A program made the translations under genes and the position numbers. Of a DNA stretch of 10,003 bases, positions 1 through 9,420 are shown one piece after another; positions within the stretch are counted from its first letter, which is position 1, and each line of letters opens with the position of its first letter. The notes below the pieces were generated by a model, which was not told the origin of the DNA, searched no databases, and saw nothing but the letters and a program-made list of their open reading frames with translations. Source of the DNA: Candidatus Auribacterota bacterium (GTDB taxonomy: Bacteria > Auribacterota > JAFGBW01); contig JAFGBW010000258.1 of the NCBI GenBank assembly GCA_016932965.1, forward strand, positions 1-10,003, in the 5' to 3' direction.

Positions 1-2933
1 AAAAAATTCATCCATGCACGCTGATGATGCTTCCATTGAACTTGTTTCCTGCAGACTTGCATGAAGCCGGATTCAAAAAGAGTGAAAATGCCTCCCTCAA
101 TGATCACGGTTATATGGCCTAAGGATACGGTCAAGGGAGATAAAAACCTGGGCGCAGCGTCATCCTCATCTATCCAATATTCCCTGATATGAGAGGGTTT
201 ACCTAATAAGATGGCCCGGCAGGCTGAAGGCCGTTTCCGGGCAACTTTATGTTCAATGCGAGTACAAACTTCCAGCCATTTTTCTGTCTCTGGCCTGTTC
301 CAGGTTCCTTTTGGCAGAATTCCTTTTTCAGTCATGAGGCGTGAAAAATGAAGGACGGCTTCCTGAGGAGGAAAATTTATATTTTTAAGACAATCTTCAA
401 GATAACGCCTGTAGAACCGGGTTTCATCTATTGGATTCAGATGAAAAGGTTCATCCTCCTCCTCAAGGGAAAGAGAATCGCCGGTAAACTGAATGCCGAG
501 AATTTTTCGATAATAGGATTCAATCGGATTTTTTATAAAAAGAAAAAGGTCATCCGCATGAAGAGTCATGGTTTCTCCAATGGTTTCTTGTGAAACCGGA
601 GTGGGGACATGGATAAAGCTTTTATCCTGCTTTTGCATGAACGATTTCGCCGCTGAGAGATTGCATTCATTGAATGAAAAGAATGGAGATGTACCTGAAA
701 AATAACGTTCGTCGAATGAATGAAGGGGGTGGATCTCAGTCAATGATCGCTCCATGGATGAAACATTCTCTGCAATAAAACAAGATTCACAGTATTGCAC
801 GAATTCCCTGACCAGAAGAGACGGTTGTAAAACCGTATCATGAATAAGATCTTTTCCGGTGTAAAACAAATAAAATTTCTCCCTGGCAGAAATGAGGGTT
901 TCAAGAAAAGAGTACCGGTCCACATCCCTTTGCGTCGCATCCAGAAGGTGGGGATTGGCAGCAAGAAGGTCAAAATGCAGTCTGGATTCTTTTTGCGGAA
1001 AAACGCCATCGTCCATCCCCAGTATGCAGATCACTCTTTTAGGTACCGCCCTCATGGAACGAATGGAAGAAAAAGTGATGCCATGCCCTGATCCAAATGA
1101 TCTAGATGCCAGCATTTTTTCCATTTCGTCTTGCAACATTTCCCTGAAAAAGGAAAAGGGAACCATGAATGGAATGGTATTATTGAGAAGATGTCCTTCC
1201 ACACGCAAAGAAACCAGTGTGTCGGTAAGCCGTTCAAAATGAAAAAAATCATCCAGTTCTTCCGGACGGGGCAAAAAGAAGCTCTTCAGCCATTCCAGAA
1301 GAAAGTCGCACCATTCATCCAGGGTTTTGGCATGCCCTTGAGCTGATTCCACCCAACGAAAAAGAATCCGGCATCGTTGAATCCAAACACCTGCTTGTTC
1401 GGTTTCAGAAACTGAAGACAAAAAATACGGATTGGCTCCCCATGAGGAAGATTTCATGGCATAACCGTTCAAAACACGTTCAAAAGCTTCTTCCCAAGTA
1501 GTGGCTGACGGAATGGCGAGATCCAGGCTTTCTTTGTGTCCAGGATCGATTCCCCAGTGGATATGAAGATCTTCAATGAATTTCAAGAACCAATCCAGGT
1601 CTTTTTGATCCAGTTCAAACCTTTTCATGACACAGGGATTTTTAAAAAAATCCAGCACCTCTTTTCTTGTCATCCGTGAAGAAGGCAATTTTAAAAGCCG
1701 AAGCACTCCCTGTAAAAAAACGGATTCTTCAGTCAGTTTCAGGTCTAGAATTCGATAAGGGAGCCCGATTCCTTTTCCCGGGAATACGGCTTCAATAAAG
1801 GAGGAGTAAAGATTGATGTCCGGAGCGAGCACAGCCATGTCATCGGGCCTTAAATCAGGATTCTCTTTTAAAAGAAAAAGAATCTGATCCAGGAGGATTT
1901 CAATTTCTCTCTGCTTCCCGGCGCAGGAAAAGATTTTAATGCTGGCATCCTGTTTAGAAATGATTTCTTTTTTTTCTGATAAAGGGACCAGGTTCAGAAT
2001 CTGATTCTGAATCTTGGCAAGCAAAGTATGGGATTCGTTTTCCCGGTAAAACTCGTGCTCCTTACGGACATCTTCCCACTCCAGCAGAAAATTCAATTCT
2101 CCCCGTCCCAATTTCCCCCAGTTTGCCAATAAAGGATTGAAGTCAGCGTTCTTGCTTTCGTTTCTTGTGATATCCCCCCAATAAGTCCGGCAGGGTCTTA
2201 AAATAAAATGATGGACCTGGACTTTATCTGCGAGCTGATGAAAAAATATCTGATTGCTTTCATGGAGAAATGCCGAGCCTAAAAGGCAGATGGCCTTAGG
2301 CAGAACTCCCTCTGGCGCTCTACTCTCAGGGAGTTTTTCCAACGGCATGTTATAAGAGGAAAAACAAAAATCCTGATAAAGCAAACGCCACATGGATTTC
2401 TGCCAGATTTCCTCCTGGTATAAAGGATGATCCACAGAAAAACTGGACTGGTCATGACTCCATGATTGGAGCATTTCTTTTCTTGCAGCCTCATAGCCTC
2501 CGAAAAGAGTGGCAAGACTTTTGGAGAATTGCCTGGTTTTTACTCGTCGTATTTCCGGAGCATCCCGGGTGTTCAGAAAAGCCAAGCCCCCTTCAAGCGA
2601 TTCCGGAATTTTTATTTCTTCGAATCTCATGAGGATTTGGAATAAAAGCATCTGCATCTGGATGAGTGAAAGCATCGGATATTTCTGCAGACAATCGGAA
2701 ATATCAGGAAAAAATGAACTGAGTGTCGTTCTCGCTATTTCCTGATTCATAAAATCAATCTGGCTGTAAATGCCGTGCTTATGCGCCATCTGCATTTTCA
2801 GCCATTGATCAATAGATTTGTTCTGCGTAACCATGAGAAGAGGATGAAAGATGTCCTGGCTGAAGGCGAGCTCGCAAACAGGGTCGATAAAGGCTTCCAG
2901 GTGATTGCTGTAATATAAATAATATCCGGGCAT
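1..2933 (-). CDS. recC: RecC, exodeoxyribonuclease V gamma subunit (3' end missing)
   Basis: An uninterrupted minus-strand frame runs from ATG at 2931-2933 to the window edge, giving about 977 residues against 1122 in E. coli RecC, so the C-terminal part is missing. RecC is the non-catalytic scaffold of the RecBCD helicase-nuclease. In E. coli it splits the DNA duplex and recognises Chi during double-strand break repair. The identification rests on residue patterns that match E. coli RecC from memory. The N-terminal region has DQWLKMQMAHKHGI followed by IDF. A central block reads ITFSSIRSMRAVP, then ILGMDDGVFP near residues 637-646, RDVDRY at 669-674 and FLETLISA just after. The start is supported because the protein begins at the family's usual N-terminus (YYSNHLE, compare YHSNRLD). 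The ribosome-binding site is weak. recB and recD would be expected beyond the left edge but are not visible. No frameshift or internal stop was seen. Confidence 0.95.
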   Translation of the reverse strand, partial: MPGYYLYYSNHLEAFIDPVCELAFSQDIFHPLLMVTQNKSIDQWLKMQMAHKHGIYSQIDFMNQEIARTTLSSFFPDISDCLQKYPMLSLIQMQMLLFQILMRFEEIKIPESLEGGLAFLNTRDAPEIRRVKTRQFSKSLATLFGGYEAARKEMLQSWSHDQSSFSVDHPLYQEEIWQKSMWRLLYQDFCFSSYNMPLEKLPESRAPEGVLPKAICLLGSAFLHESNQIFFHQLADKVQVHHFILRPCRTYWGDITRNESKNADFNPLLANWGKLGRGELNFLLEWEDVRKEHEFYRENESHTLLAKIQNQILNLVPLSEKKEIISKQDASIKIFSCAGKQREIEILLDQILFLLKENPDLRPDDMAVLAPDINLYSSFIEAVFPGKGIGLPYRILDLKLTEESVFLQGVLRLLKLPSSRMTRKEVLDFFKNPCVMKRFELDQKDLDWFLKFIEDLHIHWGIDPGHKESLDLAIPSATTWEEAFERVLNGYAMKSSSWGANPYFLSSVSETEQAGVWIQRCRILFRWVESAQGHAKTLDEWCDFLLEWLKSFFLPRPEELDDFFHFERLTDTLVSLRVEGHLLNNTIPFMVPFSFFREMLQDEMEKMLASRSFGSGHGITFSSIRSMRAVPKRVICILGMDDGVFPQKESRLHFDLLAANPHLLDATQRDVDRYSFLETLISAREKFYLFYTGKDLIHDTVLQPSLLVREFVQYCESCFIAENVSSMERSLTEIHPLHSFDERYFSGTSPFFSFNECNLSAAKSFMQKQDKSFIHVPTPVSQETIGETMTLHADDLFLFIKNPIESYYRKILGIQFTGDSLSLEEEDEPFHLNPIDETRFYRRYLEDCLKNINFPPQEAVLHFSRLMTEKGILPKGTWNRPETEKWLEVCTRIEHKVARKRPSACRAILLGKPSHIREYWIDEDDAAPRFLSPLTVSLGHITVIIEGGIFTLFESGFMQVCRKQVQWKHHQRAWMNF

Positions 2934-3100: not shown

Positions 3101-4561
3101 ATGCGTCAAACCTGTTTTCCTTCTATTTATTTAATTCATATAGTTATTCTGGCGTCATTGATATTGATTCTACCGTCATGCAAAACAATGTCTCCTGTAT
3201 TTTCTCTTTTATCGCCCACGATCACACGGTGGCCTGGAAGATCAGACGAAAAAATAAGCAGAATTTTGGACATAGCCCGTAAAGAGGATATCTTCAAGGA
3301 TTTTTTATGGACAACCCCACCGATCCAAGCAAGGTCAATCGACAATCGGTTTGAATTTTCAGGCAGGACATTTCAGTTGAAGGAAATCCCTTCTGGTTTG
3401 TCCATCTGTTATCAGGGTAAGGAATATCAATTCAAGCGCCAGACATCAAAAAATCTCTATTACTCGGGTTTATCGGATTTAAAAAAAACAACCAGAATGG
3501 AAAGGCGCTGGGTGCCTAAAACCAGAATGTCTTTGGAACGTGTGGCCGTAACCAAAAGCAGAATAGTTCATCGTACATCTTTTGACAGTCACGGCAGAAT
3601 GCAGACTAGACCTCAACACGAATTTTATACGGATTGGGAAACACGTCATGTTCCCAAGACCCATTATGAATGGGAAAACCGCATTATGCCTTGTTATGAA
3701 ATTCCTGAATGCAGTTATTATGATATCAAACTGGATGGGGTCCCCAGATTCATTATTTATCCTTCATCCAATGAGGGGAAGAACCGTTTTTATATCCAGA
3801 ACCCGGCTTATTTGATTTCTACAGAAAAAAATAAAACTTTATTCGGCTCCAAGGATATCAATTTGATTTTTATTGATACGAACTCCAACGGAATATTCAT
3901 GGAAAAAGACGACAAAATGCTATTCAACGTTTGGAATCCCTATGATCCTAAATCCACCTACCGATCTATCAGACATCTCATGGATAATGAATGGTACAGC
4001 CTGTCATATTTATTTGATAATCAGTTTCTGTCATTTTCCCTGAAAGGGCATCAACTCTCAATCAATTATGAAAATGAAAAATATCTAACCTCGACCAAAT
4101 TGGGAAAGCTGGTTATCCATAATATGGAACACCCTCATGCAAAGCTTTTTATCAATGGAAAAGAATACTCCGCTTCTTTCAAAAAAGCAATCAAGATACA
4201 ATACGGCCTTTACAAATTGCGCATTTGTATACCGGGATATGCCGATTATGAGGAGAGTTTCGTTATCAACGAAACAAATCCAGAACAAACGATTTCATAT
4301 GTTTTACCTGAAAAAGCCGGTATACTTGAAATAAAAAATATTTTCATCAACAATTGGTTTCTGGTTATCACCCATGAGAATATACCGAGGATATATTATA
4401 ACCTTCCTGTTGTAAGTGTTCCTGAAGGGGAATGCACTGCTCAAATCTACGTCAACGGTTTTGTATTCAATAAATCATTCAACATATCTACAGGACAGAA
4501 AATCACCATCGATTTTGAAAAAGAAATCCAGACACTCCTAACAAGCTCATCTTCAAGATGA
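3101..4561 (+). CDS. Predicted lipoprotein with PEGA domain, otherwise unknown
   Basis: This 486-residue protein is not from a family I can name. The N-terminus has a hydrophobic segment (about residues 9-25) ending in LPSC with Cys27, a plausible but non-canonical lipobox, so envelope anchoring is likely. Residues 134-142 and 180-188 form two copies of an E-x-R-x-VPKT motif about 46 residues apart, in a stretch rich in Arg, Trp, Tyr and His. DTNSNG at 259-264 followed by acidic residues resembles a DxNxNG calcium-binding loop. Residues about 340-405 look like a PEGA domain (AKLFINGKEY, then GLYKLRICIPGYADYE), a small beta-sandwich common in surface proteins, and a weaker beta-rich repeat may follow at 406-480. 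ATG 3101 is the first start after an in-frame stop at 3074. AGG at 3091-3093 is a weak ribosome-binding site at good spacing. Two tandem TGA stops end the gene, overlapping the convergent SpsF-like gene by 9 bp. It appears monocistronic. The function is unknown; a structural or carbohydrate-binding envelope role is only inference. Confidence 0.85.
   Translation: MRQTCFPSIYLIHIVILASLILILPSCKTMSPVFSLLSPTITRWPGRSDEKISRILDIARKEDIFKDFLWTTPPIQARSIDNRFEFSGRTFQLKEIPSGLSICYQGKEYQFKRQTSKNLYYSGLSDLKKTTRMERRWVPKTRMSLERVAVTKSRIVHRTSFDSHGRMQTRPQHEFYTDWETRHVPKTHYEWENRIMPCYEIPECSYYDIKLDGVPRFIIYPSSNEGKNRFYIQNPAYLISTEKNKTLFGSKDINLIFIDTNSNGIFMEKDDKMLFNVWNPYDPKSTYRSIRHLMDNEWYSLSYLFDNQFLSFSLKGHQLSINYENEKYLTSTKLGKLVIHNMEHPHAKLFINGKEYSASFKKAIKIQYGLYKLRICIPGYADYEESFVINETNPEQTISYVLPEKAGILEIKNIFINNWFLVITHENIPRIYYNLPVVSVPEGECTAQIYVNGFVFNKSFNISTGQKITIDFEKEIQTLLTSSSSR
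4547..4561. repeat. 15-bp palindrome spanning the overlapping stops of convergent genes
   Basis: TCATCTT and AAGATGA are perfect reverse complements around a single C at 4554. The palindrome contains the plus-strand TGA (4559-4561) and, read on the minus strand, the TGA at 4553-4555 plus a second in-frame TGA at 4547-4549. The plus strand also has a second TGA at 4562-4564. As RNA it could form a 5-bp stem with a 5-nt loop, followed on the plus strand by a run of six T. That is only a weak terminator. Confidence 0.5.
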
Positions 4562-5227
4562 TGAAATTTTTTCCCTGATGACCCGGTCTAACTCCAACGA
4601 CCCCTGTTGGATATATTTATTTACGAGCTGATCCATCTGCTGATAATCGTCCTGCGTGTCTACGGTCAAGCGCAACTGTTCAGCCTCTTTGGGGAAACCG
4701 CAGGATACGGGCATGCCTTTTAGTTCTTTCCTGTTTCTAAAAATCGGAACAATGTGTTCTTTTTCCTCTTCCGTGAGGGAGGCATTTTCAAAACTCAGAA
4801 AAGTCCGCATCTTGAAAATATCACAGCCGCAGCCGACCGGGCAATGCGTCATCCAGACATAATCGAGATCCTGTTCATGTATCAACTGCATACCCTTTTT
4901 GATTGCTTCGCAGTCTGTTAAAGGATTATCTGCCGTCACTCTCACCAAAACAGATGCGCTGTATTTTTTCACAGCGTTTAAAAACCTGAGATAGACATTG
5001 GTCGGATGTCCGCGGAAAACGCTGTAGCCTTTTTGAACCAAAATTTCATTCAATCTATCTGAAGCCTTCGCATCCGATATCGCAACGCAAAGCCCCTGAC
5101 AGGGGATGGAGGAAAGCCGCTCCAGCAGATGAAAAATAAGGGGTTTACCCGCCAACGGCAGAAGGACTTTTCCAGGGAGCCTTGTTGATTCCATCCTTGC
5201 CTGAACCACGATCACAGAGTCATTCAT
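4553..5227 (-). CDS. SpsF-like cytidylyltransferase family protein (sugar activation)
   Basis: This 224-residue protein belongs to the SpsF/acylneuraminate cytidylyltransferase family (COG1861). Members have a nucleotidyltransferase Rossmann-like fold and are thought to join a sugar acid or related sugar to CMP for glycan synthesis. Visible motifs are the N-terminal nucleotide-binding signature QARMESTRLPGKVL (residues 9-22), VFRGHPTNVYLRF (70-82), RVTADNPLTD (96-105, with the probable metal-binding Asp), EHIVPIF, and LTVDTQDD near the C-terminus. The length is close to B. subtilis SpsF, so it looks complete. The ATG at 5225-5227 lies inside the end of the upstream glycosyltransferase gene (8-bp overlap), with AGGA about 7 nt before it, so translational coupling is likely. 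The neighbours point to polysaccharide or flagellar/surface glycan synthesis. The actual sugar cannot be deduced, and a GT-associated role other than CMP transfer is possible. Confidence 0.88.
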   Translation of the reverse strand: MNDSVIVVQARMESTRLPGKVLLPLAGKPLIFHLLERLSSIPCQGLCVAISDAKASDRLNEILVQKGYSVFRGHPTNVYLRFLNAVKKYSASVLVRVTADNPLTDCEAIKKGMQLIHEQDLDYVWMTHCPVGCGCDIFKMRTFLSFENASLTEEEKEHIVPIFRNRKELKGMPVSCGFPKEAEQLRLTVDTQDDYQQMDQLVNKYIQQGSLELDRVIREKISSS

Positions 5228-6155
5228 GCTTCCTGTTCACTGCCTTGAAAATTTCTTCAGCGCTGAGCCCACCTTTTTGTTTCTCCTGTTTCCTGCGCTT
5301 TAACACAAAAGGGAGCCGTTTAAGAACCTCCCAGAACGCCTTCCAGAAACGAAATCTGAATTTGAAAGCGTCCCGGATAAGGAAAAGCGGTATATAAATC
5401 AGCATGTCTCTTGTCATGACAGGATCGTGGATGTTTTTAAGGGAAAAAAAGTAATTGTTCCTGGCAGAAATGATTTTTACTCTTGTTGTGTCATATTGCC
5501 GGGAAACCGTTTGTCTCTCCTTGTGAAAAGCAACACTTCGCGGTTCATAAATGATTGGATAGCCCTTTTTCAGGGCACGGAAACAAAGGTCCGTCTCATC
5601 ATAATAATAAGGCGAGTATAATTCCGCATCATAACCCCCCAGTTCCAGATACAGATTTTTTCTGCATAAAAAAGCACCACCGCAGGCAAAAAGCGTCTGG
5701 GAATAAGTATCATCGGGATCCTTTTCAAAATAAGAGAAATGACCTTTTTCAAAAGTCCCCCCCCTGTTTCCATATAAAAAATGGTTTTCCCAGTCGAATA
5801 TTTTTCCGGAAGCGGCAAACACTCTGGGATCACTAAAATGTTTGACAAGAGAGGGGATCGTGGATGCATTGATTTTCATGTCATTATTCAGACAAAACAC
5901 CAACGGGAACCGGGCATTTTGGACGCCGAAATTGTTCGCAGCCATGTACCCCATGTTTTGAGGAGTTTTGATCACACGGATATGGGAAAAATTTGTCTTA
6001 ACATAAGAAACACTATCATCCGTACTGCAATCGTCCACCAGAAGGATTTCATAAATATGGTCTACGTCCTGAACCGCTGCATCCAGAACCGTAGGCAGAG
6101 TGTCTTTCAAAATATTTATCCCGTTCCAGTTGGTAATAACTATCGAAATTTCCAT
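5220..6155 (-). CDS. Family 2 glycosyltransferase (rhamnosyltransferase-like)
   Basis: This 311-residue protein has a GT-A fold transferase pattern and is predicted to act at the cytoplasmic face of the membrane, moving a sugar from a nucleotide donor to a growing glycan. It opens with ISIVITNWNG, then LLVDDCSTDDS (residues 38-48) for the nucleotide, NMGYMAANNFG (67-77), LNND (89-92) as the DxD-equivalent metal site, CGGAF (158-162), and YYDETDLC (184-191) carrying the probable catalytic acidic residues. The C-terminal ~70 residues alternate hydrophobic and basic stretches (about 250-295), suggesting membrane association. It is a paralogue of the gene at 6505-7491: both share CGGAFL, LGG[FY]D and an RN..F...HD pattern near the C-terminus. 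ATG 6153-6155 starts directly at the conserved first strand, but the ribosome-binding site is weak. A terminator-like hairpin lies about 20 nt upstream. The gene overlaps the SpsF-like gene by 8 bp. Donor and acceptor are unknown. Confidence 0.92.
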   Translation of the reverse strand: MEISIVITNWNGINILKDTLPTVLDAAVQDVDHIYEILLVDDCSTDDSVSYVKTNFSHIRVIKTPQNMGYMAANNFGVQNARFPLVFCLNNDMKINASTIPSLVKHFSDPRVFAASGKIFDWENHFLYGNRGGTFEKGHFSYFEKDPDDTYSQTLFACGGAFLCRKNLYLELGGYDAELYSPYYYDETDLCFRALKKGYPIIYEPRSVAFHKERQTVSRQYDTTRVKIISARNNYFFSLKNIHDPVMTRDMLIYIPLFLIRDAFKFRFRFWKAFWEVLKRLPFVLKRRKQEKQKGGLSAEEIFKAVNRKHE

Positions 6156-6175
6156 ATCGCTTCGATCCCATTGCG

Positions 6176-6203
6176 AAAAAACCCTTTATGAATAAAGGTT
6201 TTT
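6176..6203. terminator. Terminator-like hairpin with A and T tracts, bidirectional in form
   Basis: CCTTTAT (6183-6189) and ATAAAGG (6192-6198) pair, and A-tracts at 6176-6181 pair with T-tracts at 6199-6203. This gives a stem of about 11 bp with a bulge and a small loop. Read on the minus strand it ends in six T, in the leader of the GT2 gene that starts at 6155. Read on the plus strand it ends in five T. The stem has only two G-C pairs, so it may be leaky or act as an attenuator. Confidence 0.5.
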
Positions 6204-6226
6204 CCGCGCCTTTTTCCAAACACTTT

Positions 6227-6275
6227 TACCGGGCTATTTGATTTTCTTGAAACAAGAAAATCAAATCGCGGGGTA
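6227..6275. repeat. Long inverted repeat (14-bp perfect arms, 3-nt loop)
   Basis: The arms ATTTGATTTTCTTG (6236-6249) and CAAGAAAATCAAAT (6253-6266) are perfect reverse complements around a loop of three A on the plus strand. An outer TACC (6227-6230) can pair with GGTA (6272-6275) across an internal loop. No T-run follows on either strand, so it is not a standard intrinsic terminator. It would be the first of two stem-loops in the leader of the GT2 gene at 5220-6155 if transcription starts to its right. It could instead be an RNA-stabilising or protein-binding element. Confidence 0.75.
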
Positions 6276-6342
6276 TTTACTTCACCTGTGCATTCTTTCA
6301 ATTTTTAAAAGAACGAATATTATTAAATTTAACTACTGTCTG

Positions 6343-6372
6343 ATTTTACCACAAAAATTTCTTGCAACGAAA
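6343..6372 (-). promoter_or_regulatory. Weak candidate extended -10 promoter for the GT2/SpsF-like unit
   Basis: On the minus strand TGG followed by TAAAAT (6343-6351) fits an extended -10 element with five of six matches. The possible -35 sequence 18 bp upstream (TTTCGT, 6367-6372) is poor. A start near 6336 would give a leader of about 180 nt that includes both stem-loops. This is the best of several weak options in an AT-rich stretch. Confidence 0.25.
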
Positions 6373-6463
6373 GAAAGTACTCTTCTCAAACGCTCTTTCA
6401 AGTTAATCCTAACCTATTCTTATGCAATAAGTTAAATAAATCTCTATTACAATTCCAACAAAG

Positions 6464-6502
6464 AAAAAATTGGCTATGAATCTCTTCCTGCAGGAGAAAT
6501 TC
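6464..6502 (-). terminator. Possible terminator after the GT2 gene at 6505-7491
   Basis: A near-palindrome at 6478-6502 starts 2 nt after the TAA stop. In minus-strand RNA it forms GAAUUUCUCC paired with GGAAGAGAUUC around a UGCA loop, with one bulge and one G-U wobble. The wobble would be a C-A mismatch in plus-strand RNA, so the fold favours the minus strand. A run of six T (6464-6469 read on the minus strand) follows after 8 nt, which is further than in a classic terminator. Confidence 0.4.
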
Positions 6503-6504
6503 AT

Positions 6505-7491
6505 TTAAATTGCAATTTCTATTCCTTGTTTCCATGTTCCACTTATAATTTGACTATCCCTCATTTTTACGTAAGGCCGCTCAATCGATCTCTTTTTTAT
6601 AATCCGTTTGAGATAAGAAAGGGCTTTAATAAAACCCAGCACATAAGGCCAGCGGCCGTTGAATATAAATTTTAATAATTTCCACGGCAGATATAAAAAA
6701 TGCTGAAAAAGGATTTCTTTATCATGAAAACGGCTCCACATGAAAATAAATTTGTTTCTCCAGACGAGGGTTTTGAACTCTGTTTGAGTATAAATAGAAC
6801 GGGAAGTGGCTTCCCTTTTATGATATAGAGTGATCTGCGGGGTGTATAAATTATAAAAACCCCTCTGGACTGCCTGATAGCCCAAATCCAGGTCCTCCCA
6901 GGCAAAAGGGGTATAAATTTCATCAAATCCGCCTAAGTTCAAAAAGTGTTCTTTTAAAACCAGAAAAGCCCCCCCGCAGAAGAACACAGTCGGAGCAGGA
7001 GCGTTCATTTTATCTTCTTCCAGCCTGACGTCTAAAAGCCCTGTTGAAAAAACAGGATTCCGTATTCCATCATCTATGGTTTTTCGGTCCCATCTCATCA
7101 GACGGGGCACAACCGCAAATACGTTGGGATTTCTTTCATAAAGCCGCAGAAGCGGTGTTAGAAAATCCCCTTCTGCCAGAATATCATTGTTGATAAAAAA
7201 TAAAAATGTTCCAGAGCTCCTTTTAACGCCTTCGTTGCAGGCAACAGCAAATCCTTTATTTTCTTCCAACCTAACGTATTGTATCGGAAAACGTTGCCCC
7301 CTAACAAATCCTTCTGTTCCGTCAGTGGATCCGTTGTCCACGACAATCAATTCGGTCTTTAATGAAAGAGAAGAAAGAATCCTCAAGAGTACAGGCAGTG
7401 TCTCCTTCATGAGCGTCAATCCATTAAACGTGGGACAGATAAGAGAAACCAAATGGGAAGAAAAGGGACACGGATCTGAAGAATTCAGCAT
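6505..7491 (-). CDS. Family 2 glycosyltransferase (rhamnosyltransferase-like)
   Basis: This 328-residue predicted GT-A transferase is of the type found in O-antigen and exopolysaccharide loci. After a short N-terminal tail it shows VSLICPTFNG (residues 15-24), VVDNGSTDGT (50-59), NKGFAVACNEG (78-88), INND (100-103) as the DxD-equivalent, CGGAF (172-176), LGGFDE (186-191) and WEDLDLGYQA (198-207) with the likely catalytic acidic pair. The C-terminal third has aromatic-hydrophobic and basic stretches, such as the segment around LYLPWKLLKFIF, suggesting peripheral membrane contact. The ATG at 7489-7491 is preceded by AAGGA (7497-7501) at 5-nt spacing, a clear ribosome-binding site. The motif order and C-terminal pattern match the glycosyltransferase at 5220-6155, so a duplication is likely. 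The 349-bp gap and hairpins between them suggest separate transcripts or regulated read-through. It is divergent from the exported HExxH protein. The sugar is unknown. Confidence 0.92.
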   Translation of the reverse strand: MLNSSDPCPFSSHLVSLICPTFNGLTLMKETLPVLLRILSSLSLKTELIVVDNGSTDGTEGFVRGQRFPIQYVRLEENKGFAVACNEGVKRSSGTFLFFINNDILAEGDFLTPLLRLYERNPNVFAVVPRLMRWDRKTIDDGIRNPVFSTGLLDVRLEEDKMNAPAPTVFFCGGAFLVLKEHFLNLGGFDEIYTPFAWEDLDLGYQAVQRGFYNLYTPQITLYHKREATSRSIYTQTEFKTLVWRNKFIFMWSRFHDKEILFQHFLYLPWKLLKFIFNGRWPYVLGFIKALSYLKRIIKKRSIERPYVKMRDSQIISGTWKQGIEIAI

Positions 7492-7604: not shown

Positions 7605-7633
7605 TTGACACATTTAATAAATTCAGGTATAAT
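7605..7633 (+). promoter_or_regulatory. Perfect-consensus sigma-70 type promoter for the HExxH protein gene
   Basis: TTGACA (7605-7610) and TATAAT (7628-7633) match both consensus hexamers at all positions with the optimal 17-bp spacer. Transcription should start near 7640, giving a leader of about 23 nt with the ribosome-binding site AAGGG (7651-7655) 7 nt before the ATG. This implies strong housekeeping-type expression unless a repressor acts, for example at the palindrome just upstream. Confidence 0.85.
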
Positions 7634-7662
7634 TAATCACCCAGGTAAATAAGGGTATACAA

Positions 7663-9420
7663 ATGATAAGATTTTTTTGTGTATTTATTATCATATTATC
7701 GCCATTGACCCCGGTCTATTGTCAAAATAGATCGAACGACTTCTATATCGGCGGACAATATTATTTATCCCCCCTATCTATTTTTGACGACTCTGACTCT
7801 GATAGTTCCCGTCAGACGACTCAAAAAAAATTATCAGACATTTTTGAAATATTAAAAAAGCAGGGTCAAAAAAAAGTCGAACGATTTAAAAGTGCAATAG
7901 CAAGACTGCCGACAACCAGGGATCAATGGGATAAAAAACAATCCTTATACAAATTCAATCTTATCCAAAGCTTTGATACCAAGAGGCAATACAAAAGCAG
8001 TGTATACCATACCTCTATGTTTCCATATATCCTAACGATAAACGGGATTCAATTGGTCATCACCTTTGAACATTTTGACTGGTCCAAAAAAGACGTTGAT
8101 GTATTAGAAAAAGCTGTCGTATCCGGGATATACTTAATTGAAGATCTGAAAGATGGATTCATGTCACGAGGCGAATTTCATTTGCTGGATTTAAATCATC
8201 CTGACACCCTTAAGGCATTATCAGAAGATGATCAGCAAAAAGTGAGGCAATCTGTCTTGCTGATTAAAGAAAAATTCCCCAACTATCGAGCGGCGGTATC
8301 TGCTTATGTCTCCCCTGATAATCCAGAGCGACTGCCGATGGGAGGACTTTCCTTCGAAATACAGGATGTAGTTCAGTTCCTGTATGAGCCCGGCTATAAT
8401 GCTCATAATAGTGTAGATTATCTGATCGATGCAGCAATGGATAATCCGCTCATGTTACACTTGTTGTCTCATTTTCCTGACTCTGATTTTGGCATATTTT
8501 CTCCAAAAATAGTTGCAAGAAGAACATCTTATCGGCAACTAACTCCTATACCTGAAGACAGATATTTACCAGCACCGATTCTCCAGAATTCTGCTTCAAC
8601 TGCATTGGCTAAAATTGATAGGCCTCTCGACTTTTTTCGCGGGTCTTATGAAAGTCAGAAAAAGGACAGAGCCGTATGGATTGGTGAGGTTTCAGGAGGT
8701 TTTGCAGGAGAAGACAGTATTGTATTCGATGCTGATACAGAATTTACCTCACAATCTGCCCATGTCAATCATGAGTTATCCCATGCTGTATTATTTTTAT
8801 TATTACAAAAGAATAAAAAGATCATCAATCAATTGGAATACGACGTATTGCATGCCTATCCAGACGCTGTAACAATGCTGCAAGAGATAGGAGTATATGA
8901 CCAAATAGGCTCCTCAATGGACCGGACAGCAAGTGAAATCATTGCTCGGATATTGGAGAGTTTAGGAGAATTTAAAGAGCATATGACTATTAAAACCAGA
9001 AAAGGAGACATGCAATTTCCTATTACTTATCAGATCTTAACAAGATTGGCACAGACGGGTTTGATTCCTGATTATATGGATCCGGCAAAAATACTGCCGT
9101 TACAAAGCAGAACAGGTTGTATTGATCATCAGTATTACCTTCACGTTTTAGGCATACTCGCAGCAAATCGTGGGATTGGGGATTGGGTTACCCATGTCTA
9201 TTACAGAAAAGCAAAAGACAGTCTTTTCGAACGATTTGAAACCGACGCCTTAAAATCAGGCAAGCTTGATTTATTGCGGTTTTTTATTGATAACCATTAC
9301 GATTCGCTGGCGTTATGTTATGCGAATAATGAATCTCTTATTTCTTCTGATAGGATTGATAGCATTGACAAACTCAAACGTTATCTTAGTAAACTGACTC
9401 CTGTTTTGATTTCTGGCTAA
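7663..9420 (+). CDS. Exported protein of unknown family with HExxH motif, possible zinc metallopeptidase
   Basis: I do not recognise the family of this 585-residue protein. Residues 1-20 form a Sec-type signal peptide: Arg3, a hydrophobic core at about 4-12, then VYC before Gln21. Signal peptidase I cleavage is more likely than lipidation, because Tyr precedes the Cys. An acidic Ser/Asp stretch (42-49) and a basic helical segment follow. The key motif is HELSH at 370-374 (within NHELSHAVLF), which fits the zinc-binding HExxH helix. It comes after a beta-strand-like stretch (about 340-360), as in gluzincin peptidases. Glu425, in TASEIIARILESLGEF and 51 residues after the second His, is a reasonable third ligand. 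Start evidence is good: AAGGG 7 nt upstream and a perfect promoter. TAA is followed directly by TAG. The gene stands alone on its strand, facing the membrane sugar-phosphate transferase gene. Peptidase activity is inference from motifs; the substrate is unknown and a non-catalytic role is possible. Confidence 0.85.
   Translation: MIRFFCVFIIILSPLTPVYCQNRSNDFYIGGQYYLSPLSIFDDSDSDSSRQTTQKKLSDIFEILKKQGQKKVERFKSAIARLPTTRDQWDKKQSLYKFNLIQSFDTKRQYKSSVYHTSMFPYILTINGIQLVITFEHFDWSKKDVDVLEKAVVSGIYLIEDLKDGFMSRGEFHLLDLNHPDTLKALSEDDQQKVRQSVLLIKEKFPNYRAAVSAYVSPDNPERLPMGGLSFEIQDVVQFLYEPGYNAHNSVDYLIDAAMDNPLMLHLLSHFPDSDFGIFSPKIVARRTSYRQLTPIPEDRYLPAPILQNSASTALAKIDRPLDFFRGSYESQKKDRAVWIGEVSGGFAGEDSIVFDADTEFTSQSAHVNHELSHAVLFLLLQKNKKIINQLEYDVLHAYPDAVTMLQEIGVYDQIGSSMDRTASEIIARILESLGEFKEHMTIKTRKGDMQFPITYQILTRLAQTGLIPDYMDPAKILPLQSRTGCIDHQYYLHVLGILAANRGIGDWVTHVYYRKAKDSLFERFETDALKSGKLDLLRFFIDNHYDSLALCYANNESLISSDRIDSIDKLKRYLSKLTPVLISG

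What the first reader, a model, noticed from the sequence alone, without database searches (positions are those of the whole stretch)
7663..9420. Possible new family of secreted HExxH metallopeptidase next to glycan genes
The 585-residue exported protein carries HELSH at residues 370-374 with a candidate third ligand at Glu425, but no other region resembles a peptidase family I know. A perfect promoter suggests it is strongly expressed. Its place among surface-polysaccharide genes suggests an envelope role.
Basis: partly seen in the sequence, partly recalled or inferred. Interest (0 to 1): 0.6.

Follow-up and report, generated by a model that had tools for sequence, protein, structure and literature searches.

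The report
Exported orphan HExxH protein with address-like motif
The gene encodes an exported protein, unlike any known family, that is probably but not provably a zinc peptidase; it carries a short tag (L-A/S-P-x-S) just behind its export signal that many otherwise unrelated exported proteins of the same uncultured bacterium share, among them enzymes normally found only inside cells, which hints at an undescribed protein-sorting system.

Summary
In detail: an intact 585-aa ORF (7663-9420, +) has a Sec-type signal peptide, a 12/12 consensus promoter, HELSH at 370-374 and E425. No family matches it (Pfam, NCBIfam, PHROGs, PDB), and no homologue was found in 44 phylum genomes, about 380 wider genomes, GTDB contigs, viruses, phages or plasmids. 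It is an orphan, so zinc-site conservation cannot be tested. AlphaFold without an alignment failed (pLDDT 33 and 40), so the proposed structural test did not complete. A peptidase role is plausible, not shown. The glycan-gene argument is weak: the gene is on the opposite strand with its own promoter, and relatives' matching GT2-GT2-SpsF loci show no HExxH protein. Following the promoter revealed something broader. Exported proteins of this genome share a post-signal motif L[AS]PxS: 16 of 118 in a 571 kb sample, against 0.65 in shuffles and 0 of 75 in a same-order relative. This protein carries LSPLS at 35-39. Tagged proteins include radical SAM, uridine kinase-CYTH, poly(A)-polymerase-head and decarboxylase enzymes; recognisable periplasmic families in a control sample lack it. 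I read the protein as a probable exported metallopeptidase in a lineage-specific tagged set, possibly bound for a host or an internal compartment.

The parts
7605..7633 (+). consensus sigma70-type promoter TTGACA-17-TATAAT
   Evidence: 12/12 match; one of 7 in the genome, 0 in reversed control
7651..7655 (+). AAGGG, ribosome-binding-like sequence 7 nt before the ATG
   Evidence: read from sequence
7663..9420 (+). orphan exported HExxH protein, 585 aa
   Evidence: no family or homologue
7663..7725 (+). Sec-type signal peptide, residues 1 to about 21 (cleavage site inferred)
   Evidence: only strongly hydrophobic segment; no canonical lipobox before Cys20
7765..7779 (+). LSPLS (residues 35-39), instance of the post-signal L[AS]PxS motif
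8770..8784 (+). HELSH (residues 370-374), putative zinc-binding/catalytic motif
8935..8937 (+). E425 in ASEIIAR, candidate third zinc ligand
   Evidence: alternatives E392, E408, E432, E436, E439

Best explanation
The gene encodes an exported, probably zinc-dependent peptidase with a gluzincin-type site (H370, E371, H374, third ligand probably E425). It belongs to a lineage-specific set of heterogeneous exported proteins tagged just after the signal peptide with L[AS]PxS. Shown: the ORF, the signal-like N-terminus, the HELSH motif, the absence of detectable relatives in everything searched, and the enrichment of the motif in exported proteins of this genome. Inferred: Sec export leaves LSPLS near the mature N-terminus, where a sorting or processing factor recognises it and sends the protein to a destination different from that of ordinary periplasmic proteins. 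Many tagged proteins carry domains that need ATP, SAM or PLP, so the destination may be a host or prey cytosol, or an internal compartment, where this protein would cleave proteins or peptides.
For: Motif: 26 of 84 in-frame LAPxS (TCN) occurrences follow a signal-like N-terminus. In a 571 kb sample 16 of 118 signal-bearing proteins carry L[AS]P.[ST], shuffle mean 0.65, maximum 5 in 1000 shuffles; LAP is the top unsupervised 3-mer (18 against 1 further inside the same proteins). The chance for this protein's own window is 0.3%. The signal peptides are diverse in sequence. Promoter: 3 of the genome's 7 perfect promoters precede tagged genes. Cargo: radical SAM/B12, uridine kinase-CYTH, poly(A)-polymerase head, OKR decarboxylase, methyltransferase, GH116, amylase and, with variant LAPS, a glucan-water-dikinase-like protein, several with catalytic motifs kept. 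Other tagged proteins also carry HExxH: HEYLH, HEITH, HEGLH. Zincin: HELSH in V-N-H-E-L-S-H-A context, then S-E-x-x-A-R 51 residues on.
Against: No homologue, so zinc-site conservation is untested. HExxH arises by chance in 2.1% of shuffles. Models are uninformative. This protein has the rarer S variant of the motif. Motif instances in loci picked with the motif pattern are ascertained. Signal peptides were called with a crude rule that also passed clearly cytosolic proteins in the control set (SAM synthetase, prephenate dehydrogenase). HExxH excess among tagged proteins is not significant in the 571 kb sample (2/17 against 2/101, p = 0.10).
Confidence: 0.45

Rival explanations
1. Exported protein of non-peptidase function (for example an adhesin or binding protein); HELSH is coincidental or structural.
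For: No peptidase family match even at E=5 except a weak PHROGs 'peptidase' hit (E=0.43, residues 357-424); HExxH appears in 2.1% of shuffles; several Glu compete as third ligand.
Against: Motif lies in a V-N-H-E-L-S-H-A context followed by SEIIAR at gluzincin-like spacing; other tagged proteins of the genome also have HExxH.
Confidence: 0.35
2. Envelope or surface-glycan peptidase acting with the neighbouring glycosyltransferases.
For: Lies between a GT4-type gene and two GT2 genes plus an SpsF-like cytidylyltransferase.
Against: Opposite strand, own promoter; relatives' GT2-GT2-SpsF loci have no HExxH protein; shares a post-signal tag with genes scattered over many contigs.
Confidence: 0.12
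3. L[AS]PxS is not an address but part of the signal-peptide cleavage or early folding region of secreted proteins in this lineage, with no separate destination.
For: In several proteins the motif follows the predicted cleavage site directly (AHG|LAPQS, VLG|LAPQS).
Against: Distance from the hydrophobic core varies widely (7 to 32 residues); recognisable periplasmic proteins of the same genome (ZnuA, OEP, solute-binding, YfdX) lacked the tag in the control sample; annotated tagged proteins are largely cytosolic-type enzymes.
Confidence: 0.3

Closest known systems
Gluzincins, clan MA(E) HExxH...E metallopeptidases (e.g. M34/ATLF, M4)
   Same: HExxH and a downstream Glu in an SExxA stretch about 50 residues on
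   Different: no detectable sequence match to any family; fold and zinc site untested
PHROG 4415 'peptidase'
   Same: weak profile match over residues 357-424 including HELSH (E=0.43)
   Different: not significant; phage proteins; rest unrelated
Post-signal host-targeting motifs of eukaryotic pathogens (PEXEL in Plasmodium, RxLR in oomycetes)
   Same: short motif within tens of residues after a signal peptide, shared by otherwise unrelated exported proteins
   Different: bacterial genome, different motif, no host known, destination untested; analogy only, not homology
Bacterial sorting tags (LPXTG, PEP-CTERM, T9SS CTD)
   Same: a shared short element on many unrelated exported proteins
   Different: those are C-terminal; this one is N-terminal, just after the signal peptide

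Membership tests
Gluzincin (clan MA(E)) metallopeptidase | HExxH | tested here: met
   HELSH 370-374
Gluzincin (clan MA(E)) metallopeptidase | Glu third ligand downstream | tested here: inconclusive
   E425 in SEIIAR is plausible; five other Glu in range
Gluzincin (clan MA(E)) metallopeptidase | zincin fold with clustered ligands | tested here: inconclusive
   single-sequence AlphaFold pLDDT 33 and 40; Foldseek nothing at E<=0.001
Gluzincin (clan MA(E)) metallopeptidase | zinc site conserved in homologues | not testable with these tools
   no homologue found
Metzincin | HExxHxxGxxH/D | tested here: not met
   HELSHAVLFLL
Any curated peptidase family in Pfam/NCBIfam | profile match above cut-off | tested here: not met
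Lipoprotein | lipobox before Cys | tested here: not met
   P-V-Y-C before Cys20, not a canonical L-[AST]-[GA]-C
Post-signal L[AS]PxS exported set of this genome | signal peptide followed within 45 residues by L[AS]P.[ST] | tested here: met
   LSPLS at 35-39

The most novel reading that the evidence does not exclude
An uncultured bacterium uses a post-signal L[AS]PxS tag to send about ninety exported proteins, including cofactor- and ATP-dependent enzymes and several candidate metallopeptidases such as this one, to a destination with cytosol-like contents (host or prey cell, or an internal compartment): a bacterial counterpart of PEXEL/RxLR host targeting.
Probability: 0.3. Interest if true: 0.88.

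Novelty: new variant of a known kind. Interest (0 to 1): 0.6.

Why it matters
A lone orphan HExxH protein would be a minor find. A shared N-terminal tag on a large, mixed set of exported proteins, which includes radical SAM, kinase and nucleotidyltransferase-type enzymes that should not work in an ordinary periplasm, would point to an unrecognised bacterial sorting route, and would give a simple sequence rule for predicting its cargo. I found no description of it: 'LAPxS' returned no paper in the library, which holds open-licence papers only.

Tried and rejected
Homology by Pfam, NCBIfam, PHROGs, PDB sequences, genome contigs, viral contigs, phages and plasmids: nothing significant. Weak catalytic-core hits in relatives (E 0.009-2.5): all but one lie outside HELSH, and that one is a 51-aa open frame with a stop; discarded as noise. 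AlphaFold without alignment on the mature protein and on residues 320-470, plus Foldseek: uninformative. Sequence relation to the HEYLH tagged protein: none. HExxH enrichment among tagged proteins: not significant. Promoter strength of tagged against other exported genes: only marginal (p = 0.04). Literature searches for the motif, for secreted proteins of Omnitrophota and for bacterial glucan water dikinases gave nothing on this tag.

Full report
Observation. The ORF at 7663-9420 (+) is real and intact: 585 aa, ATG start, AAGGG seven bases upstream, a 12/12 sigma70-type promoter at 7605-7633. HELSH lies at 370-374 and E425 in ASEIIAR. HExxH appears in 2.1% of shuffles of this protein, so it is suggestive only. 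E425 is one of six Glu within 10-65 residues of H374. The N-terminus looks like a typical signal peptide and is the only strongly hydrophobic segment. The window is a whole contig (10,003 bp) of a 3.14 Mb, 300-contig genome.

Orphan status. No Pfam or NCBIfam family, no PDB sequence, and only a non-significant PHROGs 'peptidase' hit (E=0.43) over residues 357-424. No homologue in 44 phylum genomes, 384 genomes spread over the domain, 40 of another phylum, GTDB contig scans, viral contigs, phages or plasmids. The contig scans reach close relatives only, and no other genome of the same family was among those searched, so 'orphan' means without detectable relatives here. The fragment model's order of elements (two strands, HELSH helix, later E425 helix) would fit a zincin, but at that confidence it is not evidence.

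Glycan context. Neighbours are GT2, GT2, an SpsF-like cytidylyltransferase and a GT4-type gene, all on the minus strand; the HExxH gene is on the plus strand with its own promoter. In G014, G021 and G007 a GT2-GT2-SpsF set is followed by what read as NeuB-like and SDR-type genes; in G001 and G002 the GT2a-SpsF part is kept. No HExxH protein occurs in any of these loci. The link to surface glycans is therefore weak.

From promoter to motif. Searching the genome for perfect promoters gave seven, none in the reversed control. Two others precede exported proteins, one a GH116 enzyme with LAPISEVF after its signal peptide, the other a 410-aa HEYLH protein with LAPQSTM. The protein in question has YLSPLSIF. 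A pattern search for LAPxS DNA (TCN serine) gave 170 places (control 139), and of 84 in-frame instances in the 100 loci read, 26 follow a start codon and signal-like segment. Because those loci were selected by the motif, I then took 571 kb of long stretches of contigs and examined every signal-bearing gene. Several of these contigs were known to hold pattern hits, so the sample is not fully blind, but its genes were not chosen by the motif. Of 118 signal-bearing proteins with fewer than two further TM segments, 16 have L[AS]P.[ST] in the 45 residues after the hydrophobic core, none at residues 100-145 of the same proteins; shuffles give 0.65 on average and at most 5. Without supervision LAP is the most frequent 3-mer there (18 against 1). 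In the same-order relative G001 it is 0 of 75 (Fisher p = 0.0003), and in 281 kb of other relatives 0 of 108 signal-like frames. Scaled to the genome, roughly 90 proteins would carry the motif, an estimate that the choice of contigs may inflate. The protein studied has LSPLS at 35-39; its window would do so by chance in 0.3% of shuffles. Looser variants (LAPS, LAPKK, LAPKN, LAPQE, LAPRF) also occur.

Cargo. Tagged proteins with recognisable domains include radical SAM with B12-binding domain, a second radical SAM protein, uridine kinase-CYTH, poly(A)-polymerase head, Orn/Lys/Arg decarboxylase, a methyltransferase, metallo-beta-lactamase, GH116 and alpha-amylase, and, with variant tags, a glucan-water-dikinase-like protein and its Ig-domain neighbour. 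Radical SAM CxxxCxxC, the kinase P-loop and a decarboxylase SFHK are kept. Homologues of the uridine kinase domain elsewhere are mostly in 205-250 residue open frames, too short to carry such an extension. A random sample of 20 signal-like proteins without the strict motif, from the same contigs, contained ordinary periplasmic or outer-membrane families (ZnuA, OEP, solute-binding, YfdX, Ysc84); it also contained obvious cytosolic proteins that my crude signal rule let through (SAM synthetase, prephenate dehydrogenase, a radical SAM protein), so cargo proportions are approximate. Several tagged proteins carry HExxH (this one, HEYLH, HEITH, HEGLH, HEGDH), but the excess is not significant in the 571 kb sample.

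Mechanism. Best-supported reading: Sec export, then recognition of L[AS]PxS near the mature N-terminus by an unknown factor, delivering a mixed enzyme set to one destination; this member probably cleaves proteins there through a zinc site. The signal-like N-terminus and tag enrichment are shown; peptidase activity, recognition and destination are inferred. Host or prey delivery would explain ATP-, SAM- and PLP-dependent cargo; an internal compartment would too. PEXEL and RxLR are analogues in eukaryotic pathogens, not relatives.

Verdict. The metallopeptidase claim remains open at about even odds or slightly better. The tag is statistically solid, lineage-specific in the genomes sampled, and, as far as I could search, undescribed.

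Noticed in passing
L162 (G000 contig C2), 1583-12084: A run of adjacent genes that nearly all encode exported proteins with L[AS]Pxx after the signal peptide (NDK-like, P-loop, radical SAM, isochorismatase-like, uridine kinase-CYTH).
   Followed up: partly
L147:301-5340 (G000 contig C82): Two neighbouring exported proteins with glucan water dikinase-type domains (Ig_N_CWD1, GWD1_pHisD, PPDK_N), a plant-plastid type of enzyme, carrying variant tags LAPS and LAPQE.
   Followed up: partly
L014 (G014 contig C318): An open frame of about 9,720 codons with a signal-peptide-like start in a phylum relative (giant protein).
   Followed up: no
window 3101-4561 (+): Lipoprotein-like gene (lipobox LPSC) with a weak PEGA match (E=0.002), convergent with the SpsF-like gene, flat codon-position GC and no NCBIfam match.
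   Followed up: no
window 4553-7491 (-); L028, L029, L030, L032, L033: GT2-GT2-SpsF genes kept in order in several relatives, followed there by NeuB-like and SDR-type genes; in this window SpsF is followed by the convergent PEGA-like gene instead.
   Followed up: partly
window 3-2933 (-): RecC-like nuclease subunit gene running off the contig end, apparently unrelated to the glycan genes.
   Followed up: no
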